Source of the DNA: Synechococcus sp. CC9902
GTDB taxonomy: Bacteria; Cyanobacteriota; Cyanobacteriia; PCC-6307; Cyanobiaceae
Assembly (NCBI RefSeq): GCF_000012505.1
Contig: NC_007513.1
Span: forward strand, 682,001 to 746,000
DNA length: 64,000 nucleotides
Direction of reading: 5' to 3'
Of this stretch, positions 1 to 64,000 are shown in pieces. The translations under genes were made by a program, and so were the position numbers. How positions within the stretch are numbered: position 1 is the stretch's first letter; each line of letters opens with the position of its first letter. The notes beneath the pieces were generated by a model. That model saw nothing but the letters and a program-made list of their open reading frames with translations. It did no database searches and was not told the DNA's origin.

Positions 1-365
1 CAACGGATCGTTCCGTTCCCTTAAATCAATTGGGCACCGGAAGTTTTGTTGATCCACAAACCGGTCAATCCCGAATGATTCCTCTGGAGATTGGTTTCCG
101 TGGAGAAGAGAATCCCCGCTACAGCCGGGAAATTACCAATCCCAGTCAGCTGGATTCCCTCAGGCTGAACCATGAACGTGGCTCGGTGGCGATGGCACGG
201 TCTCAGGCCCCAGACTCCGCCAGCGCTCAGTTTTATATCGCCTTAAAGCCTTTACCAGAACTGGATGGCCGCTATGCCGTTTTCGGGAGGGTGATTGAGG
301 GCATGGACGTTGTTGATGAGATTCGCCAGGGGGATCGGATCACCAAAGCCAGCCTTGGCGATTGA
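1..365 (+). CDS. Cyclophilin-type peptidyl-prolyl isomerase, 3' part
   Basis: The C-terminal ~120 residues of a cyclophilin-type cis-trans prolyl isomerase, which assists protein folding. The frame is open from base 3, so the gene starts outside the window. Visible family signatures are the [19 protein letters not shown] stretch (the conserved M-A-x(n)-S-Q-F core) followed by [19 protein letters not shown], the usual cyclophilin C-terminal motif. It converges on ilvH with only 2 bp between the stop codons. Whether it has a signal peptide cannot be judged from this fragment. Confidence 0.9.
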
Positions 366-367
366 AC

Positions 368-898
368 TCAAGCGGGGATCCGCGTTTCGCTGGGTGAAAC
401 CTTGAGCAGTTCGGTGTTCACCCCGGAAGCCCGCTCGAGGGCCACTTTTCCGGTTCGTGCGATTTCAAGGATGCCGAAGGGCTTCATCAGGCGTTCAAGA
501 GCTACCAACTTTCCGGGGTCGCCCACCACTTCAAGGGTTAGAGCTTCATCGGCCACGTCGACAACCTTGGCGCGGAACACCTGAACCAGATCAAACACTG
601 CGCTTCGCGTTTCGGCTGGGGCTTTCACTTTCAGGAGCATCAGTTCGCGTTCCACTGCAGGACGCTGGGTTAGATCCAGAACCTGGAGAACGTTGACCAG
701 CTTGTCCAGCTGTTTGGTCATCTGCTCCAGGGTTTGCGCATCTCCTTCCACCACCATCGTTAAGCGCGATTGGCCATCGGCTTCCGCTGGCCCCACAGCC
801 AAGCTGTGGATATTGAAACCACGGCGGGCGAACAATCCGGCGATGCGGCTGAGTGCTCCAGATTCGTCCTCCACAAGCACCGAAAGGGTGTGCTTCAT
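368..898 (-). CDS. ilvH: Acetolactate synthase small (regulatory) subunit
   Basis: Regulatory subunit of acetohydroxyacid synthase, the first common enzyme of branched-chain amino acid synthesis; it confers valine feedback control on the large subunit. The 176 residues begin with an ACT domain (about residues 3-75, opening [19 protein letters not shown] and then [16 protein letters not shown]), followed by the ALS small-subunit C-terminal domain. The length is normal for cyanobacterial IlvH. The ATG overlaps the stop of the upstream hydrolase gene by 4 nt, so the two are probably co-transcribed. Confidence 0.95.
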
Positions 899-1929
899 AT
901 CTGCTGAACGTCCCCTGCTGGTCTGCTGTTACCCAAGTTACGGTCCAGCCAGGGCAGCAGAGCATTTAGGAACTGATTCGGGTCCTCATCGTGGGAGCAA
1001 TGCCCGCAGTGATTGAGCACTTTGAGCTCCACCCAGGGGTGTTGATCCACAACCTTTTGGCCGACGCTGAGGGGGACAAAACGATCGTTTCGGCCCCAGA
1101 GCATCAACATCGGCAGTTGTGTTGTCGCTAGCTGTTCCAGTAGGGCCGGAGCTGTTGCTCCGCTGGGTCGAAGACCCATGCCAAGAGTCATGGCCCGTAG
1201 GGCTCGGGCTGCGGTCGGTCGGCGGGCTGGACGACAAATCAGCTGCTGCAGATCAAGGTCGTTGGTGATGGAACAGGTGTAGGCACCTTGCAGTCCAAGC
1301 CGAATCAGCTTGCTGCGGGCAATCACTGGCACGATCCACTGCAAGGGAATCAGTTGAACGATCAAGCTGAGCCATCCCCGTTGCCAGCGTCGTCGCCACG
1401 GTGAACGTCGTCGTGGCACCGGCTGGAGCAGGGCCGGATCAGGCAGCGGTGCTGCCACGAGTGCTCTCACCAAATCGGGCGTCAGAACGGCTGTGGTGAG
1501 GGCACTGAGACCACCCAGGGAGTTCCCCACGAGTACGGCGGGCCGCTGAACAATCTCCTGGAGAAAGGCAGCGGTTTGCTGTCCCCAAATCCGGTTATCC
1601 AGTGGACCTCCCTGGCGAATCCCCGATTGCTCCGACGCGCCAAATCCCAAGAGGTCGAGGCTGAACACTTGCCAGCCCTGGGCCGCCAGTTTCGGCGCGA
1701 TGCGCCGCCAGTGCCCGCTCGAGGCCCCGAAACCATGCAAGAGCACGAGGGCTGGGCCATGGCTTGGCCCCAAAACTCGCCAATGGCATGTCCATTGTTG
1801 ATTTTGGTTTCTACGACTTGGCTGTCGACGCCAAGTCCATTCGTGGTGGTGCCCCCAGGCGCTGGTTTCGGCCTCCGGGCACCATGGCTCGGCAGGCTGG
1901 AGTGCATTGGCTGACACAGCTCTGGGCAT
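895..1929 (-). CDS. Alpha/beta-fold hydrolase
   Basis: Predicted alpha/beta hydrolase of 344 residues; substrate unknown. It has the oxyanion-hole motif HGFGAS (about 65-70), the nucleophile elbow GNSLGG with Ser137, an acid-residue region [10 protein letters not shown], and a C-terminal His in [12 protein letters not shown], so the catalytic triad looks complete. Such proteins are common in cyanobacteria, and some act on chlorophyll or lipid esters, but nothing here decides the substrate. The first ATG (1929) overlaps the divergent trm1 start region by 23 bp; no later Met lies before the conserved core. The stop overlaps ilvH by 4 nt. Confidence 0.85.
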
Positions 1930-3085
1930 ACCGGATCATCACTATCGCGAAGGGTCTGCCTCCCTAACGCTGGGATCGGGGTTTTTTCGTCCGGATTCTC
2001 GGCCTTCCCGGGACTGTTCGGTGCTGTTGGCCCGTCATCAACAGCAGAACGCGGAGGGCCAACTCCGCTGGCTCGATCTCATGGCAGGGTGCGGAATTCG
2101 TGGTTTGCGCTGGGGATTAGAAGCCGTTCCAGCCAGAGCAGAGCGGGTTGAGCTCTGGGTGAACGATGGCGACCCAGATCGTTTGCCCTGCCTGGAGAGC
2201 AACCTGAGTGGTCTCCCGATGCCGGTGCGCATCAGTTCCCAGGCTGCCGAGGTGGTGTTGGCACAGGCGTATCTGGAAGGCCGCTTTTTCGATTTGATCG
2301 ATCTTGATGCGTTCGGCGCCCCTGGGGCATTAATTCAGCCGGTTTTACAAGCCTTGCGGTTCGAGGGGCTGCTGCTGCTGGCAAGTACGGATGGGCGCTC
2401 CCCAACGGGCCACGACCGCGCTGGAGCGGTTCGCAGCCTTGGTGCGGCTGCACGGGTGCATCCTGCGAGCTGGGAATTGGCTTTGCGCCACCAACTTGGA
2501 TTGCTGGCCCGTCAAGCTTGGATGTTGGGTCGGGGTCTTCAACCCCTGCTTTGTTTCAGTGAAGGAAGAACCTTTCGGGTTGGTGTGCGCATGCGGCGGC
2601 ATCTTCAACCGGGCGAGGAGCATCGCTTGGGCCTCTTGGCTCGTTGTGACGCCTGTGGATCGCAAGTGGTGCAGATTTTGAGAAATCTCAGTGGGTGGCC
2701 AGCCTGTCGCTGTGCAAGCGGAGCAGGTCGGTGGAGTGTGAGCGGTCCCCTCTGGATCGGACCTCTGCAGGATCCTCAAACCTTGGCTGCGTTGCGCCGC
2801 GATCCCTGGCTGCGGGAACCGGGGGCTATCTCCAATCAGACGCAGCGGTTGCTGGAGCGTTTAGAGGCCGACCCAGGCAGTCCGGCAACGGTTTGGCCCA
2901 CCGATGAGTTGGCGCGACGTGTTGGTATTGGTGGGCCGCCGCCCTTGAACCAGCTCGTCACAGCGGTGCGGCGAGCCGGATTTCAGGCCTATCCCAGTGG
3001 CGTGATGGCTGGGCAATTGCGAACCGATGCAGATTTAACAGTCCTGTTAAGGCTTTGCGCTGATTTGTGTTCCGAAGGGACTTAA
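1907..3085 (+). CDS. trm1: tRNA (guanine26-N2)-dimethyltransferase Trm1 family
   Basis: SAM-dependent enzyme making N2,N2-dimethylguanosine in tRNA. The 392 residues carry a Rossmann SAM-binding motif, LDLMAGCGIRGLRWG (56-70), an acidic NDGDPD segment after the next strand, and DLDAFG (132-137) in place of the DPFG catalytic motif. A Cys cluster (CDACG ... CRC) in the C-terminal half resembles the Trm1 zinc site. Trm1 is mainly archaeal/eukaryotic but is known in Aquifex and cyanobacteria. The start used is TTG at 1907, which overlaps the divergent hydrolase; the homologous region begins by YREGSA, so the true start cannot be far downstream. Confidence 0.85.
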   Translation: MADTALGIPDHHYREGSASLTLGSGFFRPDSRPSRDCSVLLARHQQQNAEGQLRWLDLMAGCGIRGLRWGLEAVPARAERVELWVNDGDPDRLPCLESNLSGLPMPVRISSQAAEVVLAQAYLEGRFFDLIDLDAFGAPGALIQPVLQALRFEGLLLLASTDGRSPTGHDRAGAVRSLGAAARVHPASWELALRHQLGLLARQAWMLGRGLQPLLCFSEGRTFRVGVRMRRHLQPGEEHRLGLLARCDACGSQVVQILRNLSGWPACRCASGAGRWSVSGPLWIGPLQDPQTLAALRRDPWLREPGAISNQTQRLLERLEADPGSPATVWPTDELARRVGIGGPPPLNQLVTAVRRAGFQAYPSGVMAGQLRTDADLTVLLRLCADLCSEGT

Positions 3086-46242: not shown

Positions 46243-46304
46243 ATGAAAGCTCGAACGCGTCGAGCCGGGGGTGTGAGGAGTGTGTGGGCGCTAGCCCGCA
46301 CACA
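46243..46304 (-). ncRNA. yfr1: Yfr1 small RNA
   Basis: Contains the ultra-conserved unpaired motif ACTCCTCACAC (minus strand, 46281-46271). Upstream is a 5' hairpin (GTGT..GGGC / GCCC..ACAC, 46303-46282); downstream is a terminator hairpin GCTCGA-CGCGT-TCGAGC (46265-46249) followed by TTT and a T-rich stretch. This is the Yfr1 layout, and guaB-trxA is its known location in marine picocyanobacteria. Yfr1 acts by base pairing with mRNAs, for example porin messages. Exact ends are estimated. Confidence 0.93.
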
Positions 46305-50874: not shown

Positions 50875-52098
50875 TTGGCTGATTGCGCTGATGTGTTGGT
50901 GATCGGGGGCGGTCCGGCCGCCCTTTGCATTGCTTCTGAATTGCATCAGCGCGGAGTGGTGGTTGAGGGCATTGCACCGAATCCGGTGGATGCCCCTTGG
51001 CCGAACACCTATGGGATTTGGGCAAAGGAGCTCGAGCTATTGGGCCTCGAGGATTTGCTGGAGCACCGCTGGAGCAACACGGTGAGTTTTTACGGCGCAG
51101 GGGGCTCGGATTTAGACGATCAACCCACGCCGCACGGGCTGGATTACGGGTTGTTTGATCGGCAAAAGCTTCAGCAGTACTGGTTGGGCCGTGGCGAGGG
51201 AATCACCTGGCATCAAGACAGCGTCGATCGCATCGAGGTGAAGGCTGACCGCACTTGGGTGCATTGCGCTTCTGGCGAACAACGCCTGGCCCGGGTTGTG
51301 ATTGATGCCTCAGGCCATCGAACACCGCATATCCGTCGTCCGGATCAGGGGCCGGTGGCTGGGCAAGCCGCCTATGGCGTAGTGGGTCGCTTTGAAAAAG
51401 CTCCAGTGGAGCCAGGCCAATTCGTGCTGATGGATTTTCGCTGCGATCACCTCAGCCCAGAGCAACGCCAGCAGCCCCCCACCTTTTTGTATGCGATGGA
51501 CTTTGGTGATGGGGTTTATTTCCTGGAGGAAACATCGTTGGCTTTAGCTCCGGCGGTGCCGGAAGCTGAGTTGAAGCAACGGCTGGAGCAACGTTTGGCC
51601 AATGCGGGGAATGCAATCACCGAAGTGATGGATGTTGAACATTGTTTGTTTCCCATGAATTTGCCGTTGCCGGATTTCCATCAGCCGGTGTTGGCCTTTG
51701 GCGGTGCGGCGAGCATGGTGCACCCAGCCTCGGGCTACATGGTGGGTGCGCTGTTAAGACGCGGGCCAGGTTTGGCAAAAGCCTTGGCATCGGCTTTGAA
51801 CGAGCAACCAGCGATGGGATCTGCAGCTCTGGCGCGTGTGGGCTGGCAAGCGCTGTGGCCAACGGAGTTGGTGTGGCGCCATCGCCTGTTTCAGTTTGGT
51901 TTAGGCCGTTTGATGGGCTTCGATGAACGGCTGTTACGCCGGCATTTCACCAGCTTCTTTCAGTTGTCTCAAGCGGATTGGAGTGGCTTCCTCACCAACA
52001 CGTTGCCGTTGCCGCAGCTGATGGCTGTGATGCTGCGCCTGTTTGCGATCTCACCGTGGGATGTGCGGAGAGGGTTGGTATTGGGGGCACCGCGCTAA
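50875..52098 (+). CDS. crtL: Lycopene beta-cyclase
   Basis: Flavoprotein converting lycopene to beta-carotene, 407 residues. The N-terminal dinucleotide motif VLVIGGGPAALCIA is followed by the plant-type CrtL segments PWPNTYGIWAKELE and HGLDYGLFDR. Further on are FLYAMDFGDGVYFLEETSLA and FGGAASMVHPASGYMVG. The start is TTG at 50875, two bases after the gyrA stop; no ATG is available before the FAD motif. Membrane-associated, feeding carotenoid synthesis for photoprotection. Confidence 0.95.
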   Translation: MADCADVLVIGGGPAALCIASELHQRGVVVEGIAPNPVDAPWPNTYGIWAKELELLGLEDLLEHRWSNTVSFYGAGGSDLDDQPTPHGLDYGLFDRQKLQQYWLGRGEGITWHQDSVDRIEVKADRTWVHCASGEQRLARVVIDASGHRTPHIRRPDQGPVAGQAAYGVVGRFEKAPVEPGQFVLMDFRCDHLSPEQRQQPPTFLYAMDFGDGVYFLEETSLALAPAVPEAELKQRLEQRLANAGNAITEVMDVEHCLFPMNLPLPDFHQPVLAFGGAASMVHPASGYMVGALLRRGPGLAKALASALNEQPAMGSAALARVGWQALWPTELVWRHRLFQFGLGRLMGFDERLLRRHFTSFFQLSQADWSGFLTNTLPLPQLMAVMLRLFAISPWDVRRGLVLGAPR

Positions 52099-52285: not shown

Positions 52286-55200
52286 GTGACGAGACATTCC
52301 GCTGGAAACCTTATCTTCCTATTGGTATTTGCACTGCTGTGTGGTGATTGGGCTGAGCCAGCTAAAGCAAGGGCCGCTGTTGGTGGACATAAGGCACTTA
52401 GCAAGTTATTGCCGGCTAGTTCGAATGCTTCTACAACAGATGTATTGCTGGCCCAGGCTCCTAAACCCAAAAACTTTCCTGACGATCAAAAAATACCTCT
52501 GCCAGGGCCAGATACAAAAGACAAGGTTACTCTTTGGCAATTGCCAGAAGACTTTAAATCAGTAATTGCAACCGATAGTGGTGATTTTTATGGAATTTAC
52601 TACTCGGCCTGGAATAGAGAAAGGGAAGATGTTCAATTGCCAGGAGTTTATGGGTCTGGATGGATAGACGGTAGCAAAAATAATAACTATCAACCGTGGA
52701 AGGATGATGAGGATTTAGCAGAGGAGCTATCAGTAAAATATCTGGCTCAGAAGCAATCATTTATGGTTGAATGTGATTCATCTAAGGATTATCAAACAGG
52801 TTGTGTTGATGAAGTTAACGGCGAGAAAGTTAAAAATCTCAATCTCTATGGCTTCTGGAACGGGGGAGGATTTGCCTATGGAGCGATCAAACCAGATCAA
52901 TCTGTTTCACGCCCATCCGGGGGTAATTCTCCTAAAATAGGCTATTACTGGAATGGTGAGCTTTATCAAACTAATGGCGGTGATAATTATAAAATACAAT
53001 TTTTTGCGGGTTGCAATCTAAATACTATTAATTCATCTGTTTCTGACTCTGGACTATCCTCTCCTGAAGATTGTAAGAATGGTACTGCTCCTGTTCTTGA
53101 TGGAGGTAGTCTTAACTTTGATACAAAGCAGGAGTATTCAAGCTCGCTTTACGTCACTAGTAAAGGTGGAACGATTGATAACAATGGCAGAAATCTTATT
53201 TTAGATGGGACGATCCAATCGATTGGAGATACATCTGATTCGCCTAGCTCACTATTTTTTGATGGTGAAGGATCGACGTCTCTTCAGGGCAATAATTCAT
53301 ACCTCAACCCAACGACAGTCAAAGAGGGTGTTCTTGAAATCACCAATGTCGATGGTTTGGGCTCTGCTGATGCAGGAACCAGAGTTGAAGAGAGTGCCGT
53401 TCTGAGAATTTCTGTAAGTGGAGTGCAAACTCCTGAGGGTCAAGGTGCAATAAACGACGCAAAGATCAACGAAGAAATCACCTTGGCTGGTGGTGAGATT
53501 GATCTGAATGGAAATTATATCGATCTAAAAGGTGGTGTTGTCTTAGAGGGTGATGGTGTTAATTCAACTATTAGGGTTAAAGGCGGCAGTACTGAAGTCT
53601 TCGCGAGAAGTATCATTTCTGGCGATGGTGGTTTAATTAAGGATGGAGAAGGCTTTTTTCGTCTTGGAGGTGGCGGACCACAAACCTATAACGGCGAAAC
53701 GATCATTAAGGCGGGTGAACTGCGTTTTGCAGATTCAACATCAACACCCAAGACAACCCATGTCACAGTGAAAGAGGGCGCCACATTGCGTCTTGTGGGT
53801 GAGAATGAAGTCTCTTCTATTGAGGGATCCGGCAGGATCTTTCTTCAGAATGATGGTTCAGCGTTAACAGTTAATGTTGAAGATGAATCCAATCCTGATT
53901 TCGAAGGTTCAATTCGTGATCCAAGAGATGATTTGGAAGGAACGTTCATCAAGGATGGCGGGGGAAGTTTAACGCTGACAGGTAAGAATGCGTATGGGTC
54001 TTTGATTGTTGAGAAGGGTCAGTTGGATATTAATGGTGAGAATATTGATACTGAGGATATGGATCCATCTGAGGCTTCAGTATCTCTCAGTCTGGGAAAA
54101 GATCTTTCCGTAAAGGGTGGTACTGCTTTACGGGTTACTGGGCGTGATGTAGACGAAACTTATGGCCCAAGAACTCCTCCTAGAAAGGATGGAATTGGTA
54201 ACACGAGTACTTCTAATAAGCTTGCACCTCATGCCTCACCTATTCTTGAATTTGATGATTCAATCAATGAATTAACAGTTGAGAATGGCAGTCTATTGGT
54301 GGCTAGTTTTATTGGTGCATTGCCAACAGACTACGAAGCCTATAAAGATAACTGCAAGATAGGGGCGGATCCAAAAACTTGCTACAGCATTCGTCCGCAA
54401 ATTTTATTTAAGGGTGGCGAGGATACGCTAACCAATAATGGGTTAATTGTTGGTCCTGGAGAAGCAGGTACTGGGAATCATTTGCAGCTCCGTTTTGAAG
54501 GTGGTAATGACACTCTTAATAACGGCTTAAGTGAGGGCAATGACCGTAGATCTGGAAGTTGGCTTGGATGTGTGACGGCCGGTGCTGATGATCAGGGATT
54601 TAATGGATATAAGTATGGCAACACCTGCGACGTAGCGAATGAAGAAACAGGTGGCAATTTACCTGATGCAAATAGTAAGGATGCCAAGAGGAATTATACG
54701 GTTAATGTCTATATGGGGGCTGGAAATGATGCATTTACTAATCACCAAGGAAGTTATCTAAGAGGTAACTTTTATGGTGAAGGTGGTGATGATGTTTTTG
54801 GGAGCCAGGGTGTGATTCGCGGTAATATTGTCATGGGTAAGGGAAGTGATACGGTTACTTTTCAAGGAGGTGGCGCAGAGAATAAAGGGCAATTGCGAGG
54901 CATTGGTGTTCTCGATGATCGGCTTGCCCTAGGCACTGCAATCAAGATCGAAAATGATAATTCTCTAGACACTGATGTCAATAAGCTCAATTTGTTTGGA
55001 AACGCGGTGGTTTCTTACCGCAATTCTTTGGGTTGGGGGGTCAAAGAAGACTTAGAGAATTGTGGTGGTAGAAAGTCAACAACAGGCCGCAGTGATTATG
55101 GCTGTCGTTGGGATGACGGTGGATATGGTTATGCCGCCATTGTCGGTAGTAAAGGCAAAGATAGTATTTGGGTGAAAAAGAAGAGCGATGGTACGCAGCC

Positions 55201-58200
55201 CGTCGCGATTTGGGGTTCCGTTGAATTAGGCGCTTCTAATGATGCGCTGCGACTTGGGAACACACAGGATAAATTTGGTGGAGATCTCCATCTCATAGGC
55301 GATTTGGATCTGGGATCGGGTAATTCTCAAATTATTTCGATCGATAAGAATTCTGATTTTTCTGTCAGAGCCATTCGTGGCGACAATATTGATTTTCAGA
55401 TCTATGGCCTAGCCACCCTGGGTGGTGACTCTGAGCTGGGTGTGTTTGCAGCTGATCGTGATGTTGATTTAAAACAAGGAAATACCCTTAGCTCTTATAC
55501 GGGCACAACCACGATTAATGAAGGCGGCACGTTGCGTGCTGGACAGGCTTGGAGTTTGAGTTCTGAATCCATCCATCAAGTGGATGGCAAATTGATCTTA
55601 GGCGACAATGATAATAGGCGAGAAGATCAAGAGATTGGCGAACTCACAGGCAAAGGCCTAGTAAGTTTGCAAAACCAATCTTATCTTTTTTATGGTGGAT
55701 TGAACGGAGATGTTGAATTCTCAGGTACATCTAAGGGTGACGGCGCTCTTGTTAAAAAAGGATCTGGAACAACGACCTTCTCTGGCACATTTGGTCACAC
55801 TGGATTTACCAAGGTGCATGATGGGACATTATTGCTGCAAGAAGATGAAAGCCTTAGTGAAAAATCAACAGTTTTAATCTCATCCTCTACAAAACAACCA
55901 ACCCTTGATCTTGGTGATACCACGCAACGTGCGCCTAAATATAATCTTCATGGAGGCACCCTGAGAAATGGAACATTAGGTGCCGCAGAGATTAATGTTG
56001 AAAGGCGTACGAATAATGCGATCGATAGTATCGAAGGTGAACTTGTCAGCGTCAATGTCTCATCTCGCAATGATTTTGAAGAGGAGGTTGGCCTTACATT
56101 CTCCGGATCGAATCAATTCAAGAGCCTACAGATTGATCGTGCCACTGTTTTGATTGATGAGTCAGCCAATGTTGAGTTGTCAGGCGATATTCTTGGTGGC
56201 GATTTTGTTTCAAGAGGGGCTGCTTTTGAACTATCCGATAAGTTAGATATTCAGGGATCGTTAACGGTTGGCGGCTCGATTGATCTGGATGCAGGCAATG
56301 ATCTGATTCGGATTGGTAACCTGGCTTCAGTTTCCAGTGGCGTTATTGATGGTGGGTCTGGTGATTTTGATGTTTTCTGGAATCAAAATGCATCTCTAGA
56401 TTTTGATACGTCTAATGTAAAAGGCTTTGAAATTATTTCTTATAAGGGTGAGGGTCTTGCCTATCTTGGTGATAAAGCGAGTCTGATTGTTACTGCCGCT
56501 GATCGTGATATCGATGATTCTTTGTATACAGAATATGGATTGATTGTATCGACACCTTCGAATAACACTCTTGATTTTAGTTCGAACTCTAATGCCAAAA
56601 ATATCGAGTCTGGTATCACCGTTGGTCTTCTCCAGCTTGATGGTGATTCAACGATTCATCTGAGGCAAGGATCACTTGATATTGCTGCCCTCCAGTCGAA
56701 TGCCAAGGGTAAAAGGAACAAATTTATTCTCGGTGCACCACTCGAACTTTCTTCCGAGGCCCCACTCCAATCGTTGCGTGAATCACTCGTCAGCCCTGGT
56801 AGTGGTGTTGATTTAGATCAAGTGGCATCGGGCCGTTTATCCGTTGGTGCCTCTGATCAATCGATTGCGTCGATTGATCAACAGGGCGGGCTGTGGAGTT
56901 ATGAAGGCGATTTTTCATCCACTTCACTCTCAGGCCAAGGTGTTGTTGTTGTGGGTGATGGCAACGATGATTCAGAATCATCTGCAACGTTCAAGTCGCT
57001 CACAGCAGATGGCTCGCGTCGGCTTCTGATTGGTGCGAGAAAGGATGGGGTTCTGTCCGTCACCAATGGCATTCATGATTCCTGGTCACCTGATTTGGGA
57101 TTCCTGAATGTATCAAAGGCTTCTCTGATTTCTAATGGTGATGTGGTGTTAGGAATCTCTGGTGGCGATAACCCAAGCACCTATAAGGGCCTCACTGTTG
57201 TAATGCAGGATGGGTCGATCAAGACCCTTGAAAATGATGCGATTGGTCCACAATCACCCACACTGGTTCGTGGCCTGCTCCAGATTGGTGAATCGGAAGG
57301 CAGTGGAGTTAGCCAGAATTTTGCACGGCGTTTGATTGTTGGAGAAACTGGTTCGATTCAAAATGGTGATCTCTCGGTTACCAGCCTCGCCAATGCTGGT
57401 GATGTGCAGATTGATTCGCTGACTGTCAACAATGGGATGAAGCGCTTGTTGGATGTTCTTGATGAGAAGGGTCGTCGACCAATTCCTGTTGATTCACCCC
57501 TACGCAAAATCAAGGCCCAGGGTTCACTGAAAAACTTGGGTGGCAATATTGAGATTAGTGGTGATCTCAAGTATCAGGATAATCAGGACGCATCGGCTGG
57601 CCATGCACTGTTCAACATTGGGCGCCCACGATTACGGAAACAGCCAGGCCTGCTTCAGGCCAACCGAATCTTCATGGGCCCGAAGAATGATCTGATTTTC
57701 AACTCCGGTATCATCGCCACAACAACAGATGAAAAGACCTCAATTGATCTTGGTGGTGGTAATGATTTAATCCTGAATCGTGGGACCTTTGAGATTGGCT
57801 CCTCGATTATTGATGGTGGTGAACCATTAGAAATCACTGGATCGATTCTTACTCGCGAAGCTCGTTCAGCTACCGGTCTCAATATTTTCCGAGGCAGTGG
57901 CACTGAAGATCCAGGTGTCGATGAGAATCAATTGGTCAACTTTGCAGCGATTAAATTAACAGCTGATGGTGATTGGATCTTCCCACAAGGGAATGATTGC
58001 CGTGTTACCGGAGTTGGCCGTACTTTTAGTAAGAGTAAATTGGATTGCGTTGGTATCGTTGGTCAACGAAATGCTGATCAATTTCTACAGATCACCGACG
58101 GTGCGATTGTTAAAACAGGTGTGATGGAATTAGGCCGATCTAGTGATAACAGGATCGAAGTTCTTGATGGAACACTTGAGGCTGGTTTGATTGATGGCGT

Positions 58201-61200
58201 TGTTGGTAGCGCTCGAATCAACAGGTATTCTGGAGAGATTGTTTTTGATCGTAGTGTCAATGCTTCTTTTAATTCTTTGATTGTCGGCGATGAGTCCTCT
58301 ACGGCATCTCTTAAGGCAAAAGCGATTCACAATATTTCGTCGATACATGTTGTGAATGGATCCTTAGATACCGATCTTCTACATGCCAAGGATCTAGAGG
58401 ATTTAGGCCAGGTTCCGGAGCTTAAGATTGGGGCTACGATCGATAGCTCTCTTCTCTCGACAGGTAGCCCAAAATCATTGATTGAGCAGATCTCTGATAA
58501 TGCAGTGAAAGGAACGTTGAGGGTTGATGAGACTGAAGGCTATTCCAAGGCTCAACAGTTGGGTGGCATGTGGGGCTATGAAGGTGATTTTAGTGATATC
58601 GATCTTTCTGCTCAGGGAATTGTAACCACGACGAAGTCGTCTGATGATTTTTCAATTAAAGATGATGCCAACGAAGATTTGCAAGAAGATATTGATGAGG
58701 TAACGTTTAAATCAATCACTGCTCTGGGTAATCGTCGGTTGCTTGTTGGTGCTCGTGAGGGCGGCAAGCTTACTATCACTGACGGATTGCATGAAACAGA
58801 AACCTCCAATAAAGCAGCGATATTGAACAATGGTGAGTTAGTTCTTGGAACTTCTGATCGAAAGGTGCCTCAATCGAGCACCTATTCTGGTGCAACCGTG
58901 GTGATGAAGGATGGACATATTCAAACGCTTAATGCTGATGCTATTGGACCCGAATCTCCCACATTGGTTCGTGGTCGTTTGAGTATTGGTGACGAAACGA
59001 CGGGTGTGATTGAGCAAAATTTTGCGAAGCTATTAATTGTAGGCAAAGGAGGCATAGCTGAGAATGGAGCTTTGTCTGTGACAAGCCTCACCAATGCTGG
59101 TGATGTGCAGATTGATTCGCTGACTGTCAATAACGGCATGAAGCGCTTGTTGGATGTTCTTGATGAGAAGGGTCGTCGACCAATTCCTGTTGATTCACCC
59201 CTACGCAAAATCAAGGCCCAAGGATCTCTGAAAAATTTGGGTGGAACGATTGAGATCACTGGTGATCTGAAATATCAAGATAATGAGGATGCCACGGCTG
59301 GACATGCACTGATCAATATTCGCAATTTGAGAGACGTTACTCAATACAACCAGAAGGGTGGTTTGAAGCCTCAGCCAGGAACATTGGTGGCTAATTCAAT
59401 TTTCATGGGCTCTAACAATGATGTAATCCTCAATAGTGGAATCATCGCCACAACAACGCGTCAATCCACCTCAATTAACCTGGGTGGTGGTAATGATCTA
59501 ATTCTCAATCGCGGAACCTTTGAAATCGGCTCTTCGATTATTGATGGTGGCGAGCCGTTGAATACCACAGGTTCGATTCTTAACCCCGATGCTCGTTCAG
59601 TAACTGGCCTTAACATTTTTAGACAAGGCCTTGATCCTTACCGTGGCCTTTCTGATCAGGCTTCCGGCTTAGAGGAATTCCAGCTGGTTAATTTTGCTGC
59701 GATTAAGCTTGAACATGATGGTGATTGGATTTTCCCACAAGGTCAGGATTGTCAGGTTCGCGGTGAATCAAAAACTTTTGACGCAGACAAGCGCTGTGTC
59801 GGAATTACCGGTTTGAAAAAAGAAAATCAGACTATTGTTATTGAAAATGGTGCACGCGTTGAAGCCGGTGTAGTCGCCTTGGGGCGCGACAGTACCAACA
59901 CAATTCAAATTGAAAAAGGATCGCTGCGCGCTGTCCTGATTGAGGGTGGTAATGAGTTGCTTGATCGTATCCGTGACAAACGCGGTCTGGCTTCTAATAA
60001 TTTGCCGACGAAGAAGGAAGCAATTCTTTTGGGGAAAGAAGGTTCCGATGCAAGTGGTGAGTTAATTGTTGGCGGCATTGTTGATGTGGAGAAGATCACG
60101 CAATTGGGTGGAACTTGGGCCTATGCCGTTAACGCATCAGAAGATGGTTTTGGTGTTTTCCCAGAAACCACAGCTGCTGGCACGCTTGCTGTTAAAGAGA
60201 TAACGCTCAATCGCAGATCAAACGACTCATCTGTTGTGAGTCGTGCAACGTTCCAGAAGATTGATGGAAATGCGAATGATCTCAGTGTTGAAGTTGACTC
60301 GGATGCATCTCTTGCGGTGATTGATGGAATTCATGGTGCAAAAACTACATTGAGTACCGAAGGTGAAGTGAGACTCTCTGGGGAGAGTGACTACCGCGGT
60401 GTAACGACAATTCAGAATGGAGGAATTCTCTACAGCGAAAATAATTCCGCTCTCTCTGAAAAATCTTCGATTTTGATCGAGGTCGGTGGTGTTTTGGATC
60501 TTCAGGGATTCGATAACACAATTTCGTCGCTTTCTGGCAGCGGCGACCTTGTTTTAAATCCTCGTACATCCACGATGCAAATCTCAGCTGATGAGGTGAA
60601 GGGTGCTGATTTAGAGATTCAGGCGGGAGAATTTGCGGGCATAATTGCTGATGGTGGTCTGTCTGGTCTCGGCTCTATCACAAAAACGACTGATGGAGAG
60701 CTGATTCTCTCAGGCGTGAATACGTACTCCTCTCCCACCTTTGTTGACGGCGGAACATTAGTTGCGGCCAGCTCATCTGCTCTCAGCCCGGAATCAGACT
60801 TTACGCTGTCTAACAATGGTGTTTTAGATCTCAGTACTTATCCAAGACAAGCTCGATTTAAAGCCGATGATAAAAACTACAGTGCTTATCTCAAGAGCCT
60901 AACGATTGGCGATCAATCAAGCAATCAGTTCAAACCAAGGCTGACAGTTTCTTCTTTGGCGCCATTACGAGTGAAAGAACAACTCGCTTTTGACCAAGGA
61001 GAAATTGCTACTTTTCTCGATTCAGGTGTGGAATCAACTGCGCCGATCCAGATCGATCAGGCCGGAAAATTCGTGTTCCGAGAAGAATCCCGTAATCTCG
61101 GTCCGGCCAGTCTCTATATGGTCGTTTCCAATGAAGAAGCGCGTCAACAAGAAGGCACTTGGAATGTGATCGATGGTGTAGTGGAGAATGCTGATGAGTT

Positions 61201-62800
61201 GGCAAAAAATACTTACTTACTTGTCCCGGCCCTTCCGGGCGAAAAGAAACGCGAAAATAAAGCTGATTTTGTTGAGATTAATGGTGTCGACTATCGCATC
61301 GCTCAGTTTGACGGTGTTGACCAACCGTTGGCTGATGCGGCCTTATCTGACGTTCGACTGGAAAAAGGTTCGTTGAAACTGGTTGTTGAACAGAAATCTT
61401 TCGACGGCATCCAAGAGGATCTCAATGGTGATGAAGGCGATGTTGATGAGCTTCCAGGTTGTGAGAACGATGATGAGTTATGTGATGTGATCAGTGATAT
61501 CGATGGTGAAGAGGATCAGGCCTCGAATGCGGAAGAAGATTCTGCTGCTGAAATCATTGATGGTGTAGTCGATGGATTGCAAGATCAAGAGATTGAGATT
61601 CCTCTCGGATTCAATTACGGCCAACTTGCAAAACTTGTAACGAGCGGCCTTGCCCCACGAAATGTTGATGCGGCTGGCCGTGGTATTGCACTGTTTAATA
61701 ATCAGCTCGTTGATTCAGTGTTCGATCGGCACCCATTGCGCCAGTTCGAAGAATTGATTGCTGAATCCTCCGCTACTCAGCTCAATAGCGATCTTCTATC
61801 TGAGACTGCAGTCGTTAAATCTGATTCGGATGATGTTCTTTCGTCCGATATCGGGATTGTTGAGGCCGATGGCGTGTCGTACGTGGATCTTGAGAACGAT
61901 TCGTTAGATCTATCCAGTCGTGATGGTGTGAGTGCCTGGATGAAGGGCTTCGGCGGAAATAGCCGAGCCGATAATTCGAGCATTCTTTATAACGATTACG
62001 ACCTGAGCAGCTACGGAACCAGTTTTGGTGTTGATATCGCCTTGAGTGATTCGTTCCAAATTGGTGCCTATGCCAACTATGGCGATGTACGGATTCAACA
62101 CAGCAGCGACGATACCGGTGGTGGTAGTTGGGACTCAGATGGCTGGGGTGGTGGCCTAACGGCGCAGTATTCAACGCGCAACTTCTATGTGCAGGGTCTT
62201 CTTGGCGCCAGTGAATTCAGTGGGGAGCAGACCCGCAATATTCTTCAAATCAATCAAGATTTTGGTGCGAATACAGCGAAAGGCGATAAGAAAGTCACCA
62301 GTTATCTGGGGGCCTTGAGAATGGGTGCGCCATTCAAAGTGGGTGGTGTTGTTCTCGAACCCCAAGCCCAGGCTGTTTGGACCCAAAACCGTGAAGATGG
62401 CTTCTCTGAGACCAGCGGAACCGAGAAAAATTTGCGGTTGAAGTACAAGGATCGCGCCACCAATTTCCTTGAAACGGAACTGGGGATGAAGGTGTCGATG
62501 CCAATTCGTACGGGTGATCGTTCGTTGCTGGTGCCTAGTCTGCGAGCGGCTTGGCTTGCCGATTGGAATCAAAATAATGAAGCGCAGCAGATCGGCTATA
62601 AGTTCACCAATCAAACTGTCGATTTTGATTCGCAGTTGGAAACGCAGAACGGAGCGTTGATTGAAGCTGGCCTGGATTACACGATTCAGAACTTCAATCG
62701 AACGTCGTTGAAGGTGTATGCCCGAGGTGGAGCCGAGGTGTGGGGTGGAGATCGTGGAACCACCTGGCGTGGAAGTGGTGGTGTCACCTTCCAGTTCTAA
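52286..62800 (+). CDS. Giant autotransporter protein, 3504 aa
   Basis: Type Va-like secreted surface protein. Signal peptide at 1-29 (GNLIFLLVFALLCGDW, cleaved near ARA). A very long passenger (about 30-3000) carries at least nine autotransporter-associated repeat-like elements of the form G-x-L-x-L-x-G-x-N-x-Y-x-G-x-T-x-V-x-x-G-x-L (near residues 332, 452, 556, 1066, 1157, 1630, 2199, 2701, 2799), predicting a beta-helix. A ~550-residue module starting at a G-G-x-W-x-Y motif recurs at 1534, 2093 and, degraded, 2608. Sixteen passenger Cys form eight close pairs. An acidic linker (about 3035-3100) leads to a C-terminal barrel (about 3213-3504) ending in TFQF. The GTG start is the only one in frame; GAGGAG lies 14 nt upstream. 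More AT-rich than its neighbours. Probable adhesin or surface layer protein; function unknown. Confidence 0.85.
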   Translation: MTRHSAGNLIFLLVFALLCGDWAEPAKARAAVGGHKALSKLLPASSNASTTDVLLAQAPKPKNFPDDQKIPLPGPDTKDKVTLWQLPEDFKSVIATDSGDFYGIYYSAWNREREDVQLPGVYGSGWIDGSKNNNYQPWKDDEDLAEELSVKYLAQKQSFMVECDSSKDYQTGCVDEVNGEKVKNLNLYGFWNGGGFAYGAIKPDQSVSRPSGGNSPKIGYYWNGELYQTNGGDNYKIQFFAGCNLNTINSSVSDSGLSSPEDCKNGTAPVLDGGSLNFDTKQEYSSSLYVTSKGGTIDNNGRNLILDGTIQSIGDTSDSPSSLFFDGEGSTSLQGNNSYLNPTTVKEGVLEITNVDGLGSADAGTRVEESAVLRISVSGVQTPEGQGAINDAKINEEITLAGGEIDLNGNYIDLKGGVVLEGDGVNSTIRVKGGSTEVFARSIISGDGGLIKDGEGFFRLGGGGPQTYNGETIIKAGELRFADSTSTPKTTHVTVKEGATLRLVGENEVSSIEGSGRIFLQNDGSALTVNVEDESNPDFEGSIRDPRDDLEGTFIKDGGGSLTLTGKNAYGSLIVEKGQLDINGENIDTEDMDPSEASVSLSLGKDLSVKGGTALRVTGRDVDETYGPRTPPRKDGIGNTSTSNKLAPHASPILEFDDSINELTVENGSLLVASFIGALPTDYEAYKDNCKIGADPKTCYSIRPQILFKGGEDTLTNNGLIVGPGEAGTGNHLQLRFEGGNDTLNNGLSEGNDRRSGSWLGCVTAGADDQGFNGYKYGNTCDVANEETGGNLPDANSKDAKRNYTVNVYMGAGNDAFTNHQGSYLRGNFYGEGGDDVFGSQGVIRGNIVMGKGSDTVTFQGGGAENKGQLRGIGVLDDRLALGTAIKIENDNSLDTDVNKLNLFGNAVVSYRNSLGWGVKEDLENCGGRKSTTGRSDYGCRWDDGGYGYAAIVGSKGKDSIWVKKKSDGTQPVAIWGSVELGASNDALRLGNTQDKFGGDLHLIGDLDLGSGNSQIISIDKNSDFSVRAIRGDNIDFQIYGLATLGGDSELGVFAADRDVDLKQGNTLSSYTGTTTINEGGTLRAGQAWSLSSESIHQVDGKLILGDNDNRREDQEIGELTGKGLVSLQNQSYLFYGGLNGDVEFSGTSKGDGALVKKGSGTTTFSGTFGHTGFTKVHDGTLLLQEDESLSEKSTVLISSSTKQPTLDLGDTTQRAPKYNLHGGTLRNGTLGAAEINVERRTNNAIDSIEGELVSVNVSSRNDFEEEVGLTFSGSNQFKSLQIDRATVLIDESANVELSGDILGGDFVSRGAAFELSDKLDIQGSLTVGGSIDLDAGNDLIRIGNLASVSSGVIDGGSGDFDVFWNQNASLDFDTSNVKGFEIISYKGEGLAYLGDKASLIVTAADRDIDDSLYTEYGLIVSTPSNNTLDFSSNSNAKNIESGITVGLLQLDGDSTIHLRQGSLDIAALQSNAKGKRNKFILGAPLELSSEAPLQSLRESLVSPGSGVDLDQVASGRLSVGASDQSIASIDQQGGLWSYEGDFSSTSLSGQGVVVVGDGNDDSESSATFKSLTADGSRRLLIGARKDGVLSVTNGIHDSWSPDLGFLNVSKASLISNGDVVLGISGGDNPSTYKGLTVVMQDGSIKTLENDAIGPQSPTLVRGLLQIGESEGSGVSQNFARRLIVGETGSIQNGDLSVTSLANAGDVQIDSLTVNNGMKRLLDVLDEKGRRPIPVDSPLRKIKAQGSLKNLGGNIEISGDLKYQDNQDASAGHALFNIGRPRLRKQPGLLQANRIFMGPKNDLIFNSGIIATTTDEKTSIDLGGGNDLILNRGTFEIGSSIIDGGEPLEITGSILTREARSATGLNIFRGSGTEDPGVDENQLVNFAAIKLTADGDWIFPQGNDCRVTGVGRTFSKSKLDCVGIVGQRNADQFLQITDGAIVKTGVMELGRSSDNRIEVLDGTLEAGLIDGVVGSARINRYSGEIVFDRSVNASFNSLIVGDESSTASLKAKAIHNISSIHVVNGSLDTDLLHAKDLEDLGQVPELKIGATIDSSLLSTGSPKSLIEQISDNAVKGTLRVDETEGYSKAQQLGGMWGYEGDFSDIDLSAQGIVTTTKSSDDFSIKDDANEDLQEDIDEVTFKSITALGNRRLLVGAREGGKLTITDGLHETETSNKAAILNNGELVLGTSDRKVPQSSTYSGATVVMKDGHIQTLNADAIGPESPTLVRGRLSIGDETTGVIEQNFAKLLIVGKGGIAENGALSVTSLTNAGDVQIDSLTVNNGMKRLLDVLDEKGRRPIPVDSPLRKIKAQGSLKNLGGTIEITGDLKYQDNEDATAGHALINIRNLRDVTQYNQKGGLKPQPGTLVANSIFMGSNNDVILNSGIIATTTRQSTSINLGGGNDLILNRGTFEIGSSIIDGGEPLNTTGSILNPDARSVTGLNIFRQGLDPYRGLSDQASGLEEFQLVNFAAIKLEHDGDWIFPQGQDCQVRGESKTFDADKRCVGITGLKKENQTIVIENGARVEAGVVALGRDSTNTIQIEKGSLRAVLIEGGNELLDRIRDKRGLASNNLPTKKEAILLGKEGSDASGELIVGGIVDVEKITQLGGTWAYAVNASEDGFGVFPETTAAGTLAVKEITLNRRSNDSSVVSRATFQKIDGNANDLSVEVDSDASLAVIDGIHGAKTTLSTEGEVRLSGESDYRGVTTIQNGGILYSENNSALSEKSSILIEVGGVLDLQGFDNTISSLSGSGDLVLNPRTSTMQISADEVKGADLEIQAGEFAGIIADGGLSGLGSITKTTDGELILSGVNTYSSPTFVDGGTLVAASSSALSPESDFTLSNNGVLDLSTYPRQARFKADDKNYSAYLKSLTIGDQSSNQFKPRLTVSSLAPLRVKEQLAFDQGEIATFLDSGVESTAPIQIDQAGKFVFREESRNLGPASLYMVVSNEEARQQEGTWNVIDGVVENADELAKNTYLLVPALPGEKKRENKADFVEINGVDYRIAQFDGVDQPLADAALSDVRLEKGSLKLVVEQKSFDGIQEDLNGDEGDVDELPGCENDDELCDVISDIDGEEDQASNAEEDSAAEIIDGVVDGLQDQEIEIPLGFNYGQLAKLVTSGLAPRNVDAAGRGIALFNNQLVDSVFDRHPLRQFEELIAESSATQLNSDLLSETAVVKSDSDDVLSSDIGIVEADGVSYVDLENDSLDLSSRDGVSAWMKGFGGNSRADNSSILYNDYDLSSYGTSFGVDIALSDSFQIGAYANYGDVRIQHSSDDTGGGSWDSDGWGGGLTAQYSTRNFYVQGLLGASEFSGEQTRNILQINQDFGANTAKGDKKVTSYLGALRMGAPFKVGGVVLEPQAQAVWTQNREDGFSETSGTEKNLRLKYKDRATNFLETELGMKVSMPIRTGDRSLLVPSLRAAWLADWNQNNEAQQIGYKFTNQTVDFDSQLETQNGALIEAGLDYTIQNFNRTSLKVYARGGAEVWGGDRGTTWRGSGGVTFQF
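57390..57540 (+). repeat. Internal duplicated segment, copy 1
   Basis: A 151-bp segment within the autotransporter gene, repeated 1701 bp downstream with only scattered synonymous differences. About 115 bp in the middle are identical. Encodes VQIDSLTVNNGMKRLLDVLD and following residues. Confidence 0.9.
59091..59241 (+). repeat. Internal duplicated segment, copy 2
   Basis: Second copy of the 151-bp segment, 1701 bp after the first and in the same reading frame. The flanking protein modules are also homologous but far more diverged, so this patch was probably homogenised recently by recombination. Confidence 0.9.
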
Positions 62801-62881: not shown

Positions 62882-64000
62882 CTACGACTGAGCCAGTTTT
62901 GCCCAGTCCAATGGTTGCACCAACGGGAAGATGTTGTCGTCATTGCTGATGTTGTTCAACCACTCTTCTGGTAGTTGTTCATTTCCATCAAGGGCAGCCA
63001 TTAATTGCCAAAAACGGCCGAGGTGGCGCTCGATCCGTTCTTTGGCCAATCCTGTGGTGGTTCCTGCCCGCAAGATGAAGCTCCAATCCGATGATTGGGC
63101 CAGCATTAACTCCCGTGCCGCTTGTTTGAGCAAGGCCAGATCGGCTTCATGGGCAACGCCACGGCTGCAACGGGTCACCATTGCTGCGGCAGCTTTCTCC
63201 CATTCAGGAATCACCCAGGCGTTGGTGTCGTTCAGCCAGTAATCGTGATATCCACCTTGTCCCCAGCTCGACGGACTGGGATCACACAGTTGCAACTGGC
63301 TGCTCTGATTCAACACATCCCTGAGGCGGGTAAACGTCACCCCTTGTTTGTTGGCTTGTTCGAACAGTTGGGCCAGAAACGCGGGCCCTTCGAACCACCA
63401 ATGGCCAAAGAGCTCCGCATCGAAGGGCGCGACGAGCAGTGGAGCCACGCCCATCGCCGTTTCCAGTTGATCGAGTTGCTGGCGGCGTCCCTGTAGGTAG
63501 TCGCGGGCGTGCTCTTTCACTCGCTCCGCCGCTACGGCTGGCCGGTAGGGCTCTTTTTGATTCAGGGGTGAATTGTGGTTGGTCACCCGGTGCAGTTTCA
63601 AGCTGAGCGGTCTGGGCTCGCTGAGCCCCAAGGGGGCAAGTTGTTCGACTGGTAAGTCCCAGCCCAGATCTCGGTGAAATTCCCGATAGTCCGGATTGCC
63701 TGGGTAGCCGTCTTTCGCCGACCACACCGGCAGGGTGGCTTCGCTGTCGCGACCAAAAAATGCCACTCCATTGCGGCTGCAAATGGGGGCATACACCCCG
63801 TATCGAGGCCGGGGCCGACCATGAAGAAGTCCGTGGGCATCCAGCACCGCGTAGCGCAACCCGGCATCTCGCATCCAATGGTCGAGTCCCTCGTAGTAGG
63901 CGCACTCCGGCAGCCAGATGCCGAGGGGACGTTCACCAATTAAGCGTTGATGTTCCCTGACGGCGGTCCGCAGTTGCCCGCGCACGGCCTCGGGGTGATG
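62882..64000 (-). CDS. GH57 glucan-branching enzyme, 3' part
   Basis: C-terminal ~372 residues of a family 57 glycoside hydrolase, most like 1,4-alpha-glucan branching enzymes; the frame is open to the window edge (HHPEAV precedes an internal GTG at 63985), so the start lies beyond. The nucleophile motif is GIWLPECAYYEG, the acid motif is APFDAELFGHWWFEGP, and the C-terminal helical domain (SSDWSFILRAGTTTGLAKER) is typical. It acts in glycogen metabolism. Convergent with the autotransporter gene. Confidence 0.92.
   Translation of the reverse strand, partial: HHPEAVRGQLRTAVREHQRLIGERPLGIWLPECAYYEGLDHWMRDAGLRYAVLDAHGLLHGRPRPRYGVYAPICSRNGVAFFGRDSEATLPVWSAKDGYPGNPDYREFHRDLGWDLPVEQLAPLGLSEPRPLSLKLHRVTNHNSPLNQKEPYRPAVAAERVKEHARDYLQGRRQQLDQLETAMGVAPLLVAPFDAELFGHWWFEGPAFLAQLFEQANKQGVTFTRLRDVLNQSSQLQLCDPSPSSWGQGGYHDYWLNDTNAWVIPEWEKAAAAMVTRCSRGVAHEADLALLKQAARELMLAQSSDWSFILRAGTTTGLAKERIERHLGRFWQLMAALDGNEQLPEEWLNNISNDDNIFPLVQPLDWAKLAQS

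What the first reader, a model, noticed from the sequence alone, without database searches (positions are those of the whole stretch)
52286..62800. 3,504-residue autotransporter in a marine cyanobacterium
Seen: signal peptide, repeat-rich passenger, acidic linker and C-terminal barrel ending in Phe, all in one frame, wedged between the housekeeping genes crtL and a GH57 enzyme. Established: type V autotransporters are described mainly in proteobacteria; giant surface proteins of marine Synechococcus known to me (such as SwmB) are not of this type. Inference: a strain-specific adhesin, grazing-defence or motility-associated surface protein acquired as a single-gene island.
Basis: partly seen in the sequence, partly recalled or inferred. 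Interest (0 to 1): 0.85.

Follow-up and report, generated by a model that had tools for sequence, protein, structure and literature searches.

The report
Giant swappable surface autotransporter of Synechococcus
This marine cyanobacterium carries a genuine 3,504-residue self-secreting surface protein, and related species hold different versions of it at the same chromosomal spot, with pieces traded between species; it is a known kind of protein with an unusual evolutionary pattern and an unknown job.

Summary
In detail: 52286-62800 encodes a classical (type Va) autotransporter, with PATR repeats, acidic linker, linker helix and a 12-strand barrel ending in Phe (PF03797, E 2e-37; model matches EstA, EspP, NalP at Z about 30). 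Autotransporters were already noted in Synechococcus (PMC4365693); PF03797 occurs in 80 of 271 Cyanobiaceae genomes. The gene is not strain-specific: homologues lie between crtL and GH57 in two other species, and other autotransporters fill the same junction in further species of two genera, while most relatives have a short empty spacer. One genome keeps a remnant of an older barrel beside its present gene. Barrels can be over 90% identical while passengers differ. The passenger is mosaic: synonymous divergence from the nearest homologue runs from 0 to 1.85, against 0.19-0.40 in neighbouring genes. Barrel dN/dS is about 0.03, passenger 0.13-0.38, so the gene is maintained. An N-terminal domain without a Pfam match occurs in 10 of 271 genomes. 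Best reading: a cell-surface beta-solenoid whose exposed part is exchanged between species, perhaps under grazer, phage or neighbour pressure; that function is untested.

The parts
52286..62800 (+). autotransporter gene, 3,504 aa
   Evidence: single open frame; homologue in G002 81% identical over full length
52286..52372 (+). Sec signal peptide (residues 1-29, by eye)
   Evidence: charged start, hydrophobic core LIFLLVFALL, AKA-type site; conserved in G002
52454..53080 (+). N-terminal domain (residues 57-265) with no Pfam or PDB match, two Cys pairs
   Evidence: alignment A3; 10 of 271 family genomes, each in a large frame; no PDB match, no Pfam match over cut-off
53093..61390 (+). repeat-rich passenger (residues about 270-3035), inferred beta-solenoid
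   Evidence: PATR repeats; fold not confirmed by a model
53264..53341 (+). PATR repeat (residues 327-352)
53945..54025 (+). PATR repeat (residues 554-580)
55748..55834 (+). PATR repeat (residues 1155-1183; just under cut-off when this piece is scored alone)
60680..60763 (+). PATR repeat (residues 2799-2826)
57362..58011 (+). internal duplication, copy 1
   Evidence: direct repeats D1-D3, 76-88% DNA identity
59063..59763 (+). internal duplication, copy 2
61403..61663 (+). acidic linker (residues 3040-3126)
   Evidence: 27 D/E, 2 K/R
61664..61723 (+). linker alpha-helix (residues 3127-3146) with Asn-Asn kept in all nine large-form barrels aligned
   Evidence: model; alignment A1
61928..62797 (+). 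12-strand translocator barrel with C-terminal Phe (residues 3215-3504)
   Evidence: PF03797; 12 long strands; fold matches
50875..52098 (+). crtL, left border of the junction
62882..63985 (-). GH57 gene, right border (the frame runs on past the window edge)

Best explanation
The gene encodes a monomeric type Va autotransporter. After Sec export, the Omp85/BamA machine inserts the 12-strand barrel, the linker helix lies in the pore, and the roughly 3,000-residue acidic passenger is passed through and folds outside as a long beta-solenoid topped by an N-terminal domain with disulphide loops. Barrel and secretion class are shown by sequence and model; the passenger fold, disulphides and surface location are inferred. 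The locus is a maintained surface-protein site: the barrel is kept constant by purifying selection, while passengers are exchanged, in part or whole, between species by recombination at and beside the crtL-GH57 junction. Exchange is shown by divergence patterns; that homology in crtL and the barrel drives it is inferred. The likeliest purpose is variation in how grazers, phages or neighbouring cells recognise the cell; this last step is a guess (about 0.4) and untested. The confidence given is for the autotransporter class plus recombination and replacement at the site.
For: Barrel and repeats. Omp85 and TamB genes are in the same genome. Homologues and alternatives at the same junction; remnant of an earlier barrel in G309 beside its present gene. 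Near-constant barrels with differing passengers: the four G030 barrels are 92-97% identical, their passengers' best matches 33-45% (tree). Mosaic passenger: W-G002 dS 0 at residues 1001-1125 and 1.85 at 1751-1875, flanking genes 0.19-0.40; over 1626-2750 G002 is nearer to G021 (pS 0.26) than to W (0.59), though its flanking genes are nearer to W; 0 of 1000 codon shuffles reach the observed range. Constraint: dN/dS 0.03 in the barrel, 0.13-0.38 in the passenger. The crtL tree mixes the two genera while the GH57 tree separates them, so crtL has recombined next to the site. All 16 non-signal Cys lie in eight close pairs, kept in G002.
Against: No expression, proteome or mutant data were found. 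The single-sequence model of residues 56-655 was useless (pLDDT 34). The barrel model rests on six sequences (mean pLDDT 63.6). The G021 homologue has one in-frame stop, so the gene can be lost. The empty G013 site comes from a 3.5-kb contig of an incomplete assembly. The mosaic inference rests on three sequences.
Confidence: 0.82

Rival explanations
1. A recent, strain-specific acquisition of one foreign gene.
For: GC3 0.38 against 0.64-0.71 in the neighbours; empty site in the near relative G013.
Against: Homologues at the same site in G002 and G021, other autotransporters at the site in two genera; low GC3 also in G002; no phage relative and one distant plasmid hit.
Confidence: 0.07
2. An ancient resident locus inherited vertically, with many losses and fast divergence but no exchange between species.
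For: Same site in two genera; the 55-bp junction in G013 could be a loss.
Against: Synonymous divergence swings from 0 to 1.85 within the gene; G002 is nearer to G021 than to W over about 1,100 codons; the G309 barrel, of another genus, groups with G021 and G030 barrels.
Confidence: 0.1
3. The passenger is cut off and released rather than kept on the cell (a variant of the best explanation, not exclusive with passenger exchange).
For: An Asn-Asn pair in the linker helix is kept in all nine large forms aligned; from general knowledge, EspP-type autotransporters cut between two Asn in that helix.
Against: The pair is missing in AG-673-F03 and other relatives; its register in the pore and the barrel residues that catalyse cutting were not tested.
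Confidence: 0.25
4. A decaying gene without function.
For: The G021 homologue has an in-frame stop and G309 keeps a remnant.
Against: Intact 3,504-codon frame here and 3,524 in G002, with dN/dS well below 1.
Confidence: 0.03

Closest known systems
Type Va (classical monomeric) autotransporters, PF03797, such as EspP, NalP, EstA, AIDA-I
   Same: PATR repeats, linker helix, 12-strand barrel, terminal Phe, passenger and barrel in one chain
   Different: cyanobacterial, very long acidic passenger, N-terminal domain without a known family, near-identical barrels shared among differing passengers
Autotransporter-domain proteins of Synechococcus strains (Simm et al. 2015, PMC4365693)
   Same: same domain and group of organisms
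   Different: that paper lists the domain; junction occupation and mosaic passengers are not described in the passages read
SwmB of Synechococcus WH8102 (10,791 aa; PMC4949707)
   Same: giant surface protein of a marine Synechococcus
   Different: not known as an autotransporter (general knowledge); not compared by sequence here
Giant ORFs of Synechococcus genomes (Dufresne et al. 2008, PMC2441476)
   Same: large, compositionally deviant, unevenly distributed genes
   Different: no autotransporter class is named in the passages read

Membership tests
Type Va autotransporter | C-terminal PF03797 barrel | tested here: met
   E 1.9e-37 whole protein, 129.8 bits against cut-off 26
Type Va autotransporter | 12-strand barrel with a linker helix | tested here: met
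   model with 12 long strands and helix 3127-3146; EstA Z 30.6, EspP 29.9, NalP 29.7
Type Va autotransporter | passenger and barrel in one polypeptide, passenger N-terminal | tested here: met
   one frame of 3,504 codons
Type Va autotransporter | Sec signal peptide | tested here: inconclusive
   read by eye only; no predictor was run
Type Va autotransporter | beta-helical passenger | tested here: inconclusive
   PATR repeats present; model of residues 56-655 too poor
Type Va autotransporter | passenger displayed outside the outer membrane | not testable with these tools
   needs proteomics or protease shaving
SwmB-like giant proteins | sequence relation to SwmB | not tested
   SwmB was not fetched or compared

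The most novel reading that the evidence does not exclude
The crtL-GH57 junction is a recurrent exchange site where marine Synechococcus swap whole or partial autotransporter passengers onto a shared barrel across species and genera, giving population-level variation of the cell surface.
Probability: 0.35. Interest if true: 0.7.

Novelty: new member of a known kind. Interest (0 to 1): 0.47.

Why it matters
It shows that classical autotransporters are a common and maintained part of the surface of an abundant group of ocean phototrophs, and it points to one chromosomal site where their exposed parts are exchanged between species. That makes it possible to ask directly whether grazers or phages drive surface diversity in marine Synechococcus. 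The N-terminal domain and barrel profile give handles for finding such genes in metagenomes.

Tried and rejected
Single-sequence structure model of residues 56-655: pLDDT 34, discarded. phmmer of the whole protein and profiles of barrel and N-terminal domain against PDB sequences: nothing. Viral contigs: no relative. Phage records: no match; plasmids: one distant Azospirillum autotransporter. Pairing of the Yfr1 RNA found at 46246-46301 with the gene's leader: energy within the background, dropped. Tandem-repeat search of the gene: none. Search by eye for a fixed insertion signature or target-site duplication at the junction: none seen, boundaries differ among genomes. Scan of named genomes with the barrel profile returned only six loci. 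No paper found that joins CC9902, grazing and cell surface. One alignment call each failed on wrong frames and was redone.

Full report
1. What is there. The frame at 52286-62800 is open for 3,504 codons. The protein is 371.5 kDa with pI 4.5. Pfam finds the Autotransporter barrel at residues 3217-3476 (E 1.9e-37) and PATR repeats (E 7e-23); NCBIfam models agree. The segment 3040-3126 carries 27 acidic and 2 basic residues. An AlphaFold model of residues 3060-3504, built on six related sequences, has a linker helix and 12 long strands with mean pLDDT 63.6. VIA-align ranks EstA, EspP, NalP, Hbp, AaaA and AIDA-I at Z 27-31, and the first structure not of this kind at Z 19.4. The signal peptide is read by eye. 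The fold of the passenger is not shown: the model of residues 56-655 failed.

2. Which organism. The window lies in a 2,234,828-base single-contig genome. The size matches the 2.23 Mb given for Synechococcus CC9902, clade IV; G002 at 2,285,034 bases matches BL107 at 2.28 Mb (PMC2441476). These identifications are inferences from size.

3. How common. PF03797 matches are in 13 of 34 genus genomes, 12 of them over the cut-off, 80 of 271 family genomes and 68 of 386 phylum genomes. Simm et al. 2015 wrote that autotransporter-domain proteins are specific for Synechococcus strains in their set (PMC4365693). The genome has a second, short autotransporter-type protein of 472 aa.

4. The site. crtL and GH57 are convergent neighbours in both genera examined. 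In most genus genomes the gap between the crtL and GH57 matches is about 10-175 bp; G018 has about 380 bp and G029 about 1.4 kb without autotransporter similarity. The gap holds an autotransporter in G000, G002 (3,524 aa), G021 (901 and 2,605 aa, one in-frame stop between them), G030 (1,344 aa) and, at a contig end, G026; and in the other genus in G250, G589, G593 and G309. In G426, of a third genus, an autotransporter of another barrel class follows crtL, but GH57 was not found there. G013, whose crtL and GH57 fragment are 91% and 93% identical to ours, has about 55 bp there. G309 keeps the last 105 codons of an older barrel between crtL and its present gene. No tRNA is in the window.

5. Barrels and passengers. 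In the barrel tree, G021, G030, G006 and G309 barrels form one group across the two genera. The four G030 barrels are 92-97% identical to each other while the best passenger matches are 33-45% identical. G309 (at the junction) and G030_1240 (elsewhere) share a 65% identical passenger.

6. Mosaic. Against G002, dN/dS is 0.03 over residues 3251-3500 and 0.13-0.38 in the passenger; dS runs from 0.035 to 1.6 in 250-codon windows, against 0.19-0.40 in gyrA, crtL, GH57 and leuA. With G021 added, residues 1626-2750 show G002 closer to G021 (pS 0.26) than to W (0.59), whereas the flanking genes show the opposite. None of 1000 codon permutations reached the observed range of the difference. The crtL and GH57 trees disagree: GH57 separates the genera, crtL mixes them. 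So recombination acts on and beside the gene. GC3 is 0.38 against 0.64-0.71 in the four neighbours of the same genome.

7. N-terminal domain. Residues 57-265 align with five other autotransporters and share conserved Gly, Trp, Tyr and Cys positions. The domain occurs in 10 of 271 family genomes, each in a large open frame; nine belong to a gene with the barrel, and the G337 frame was not followed to its end. No member matches a Pfam family over its cut-off, the only hit being DUF693 at E 0.14, and no PDB sequence matches. Outside this family of genomes it was not searched.

8. Mechanism. Export by Sec, insertion by the Omp85 machine (one Omp85 and one TamB gene found), passage of the passenger and folding outside. 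Only the barrel class is shown; the rest follows from established knowledge of type Va secretion. A conserved Asn-Asn in the linker helix is a possible self-cleavage site, untested. All 16 cysteines outside the signal peptide lie in eight close pairs, at matching places in G002, which fits small disulphide loops.

9. Verdict. A genuine member of type Va, not new in kind; the exchange at one junction and the shared-barrel pattern are the interesting part. The biological function remains open.

Noticed in passing
L152-L153 (G585:C1:2328200-2362500) and L154-L155 (G395:C1:261400-291500): Open frames of 10,770 and 9,433 codons with signal-like starts, QSIGGGGG repeats and a split PF03797 barrel; the first contains masked stretches read as X. 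Far larger than the window's gene.
   Followed up: partly
L069:1895-16156: A 4,753-aa frame in G021 with a split autotransporter barrel, another giant class.
   Followed up: no
L074:2959-4377; relatives L003-L006, L008, L009, L011: Short autotransporter-type proteins of about 460-550 codons with little passenger and, where read, a CFGPCTQFPPAPPYRQF-like motif; the G002 copy is cut by an in-frame TAA.
   Followed up: partly
window 50875-52098: crtL is 93% identical to that of G250 in another genus but about 72% to most genomes of its own genus, a sign of gene exchange.
   Followed up: partly
L067:2883-14003 and L071:3061-13821: A second shared neighbourhood for large autotransporters in G006 and G030, beside similar flanking genes by eye.
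   Followed up: no
window 46246-46301: Yfr1 small RNA (Rfam RF01116, 61.9 bits).
   Followed up: partly
L113:4960-6400: G029 has about 1.4 kb of AT-rich DNA in the crtL-GH57 gap with no autotransporter similarity.
   Followed up: partly
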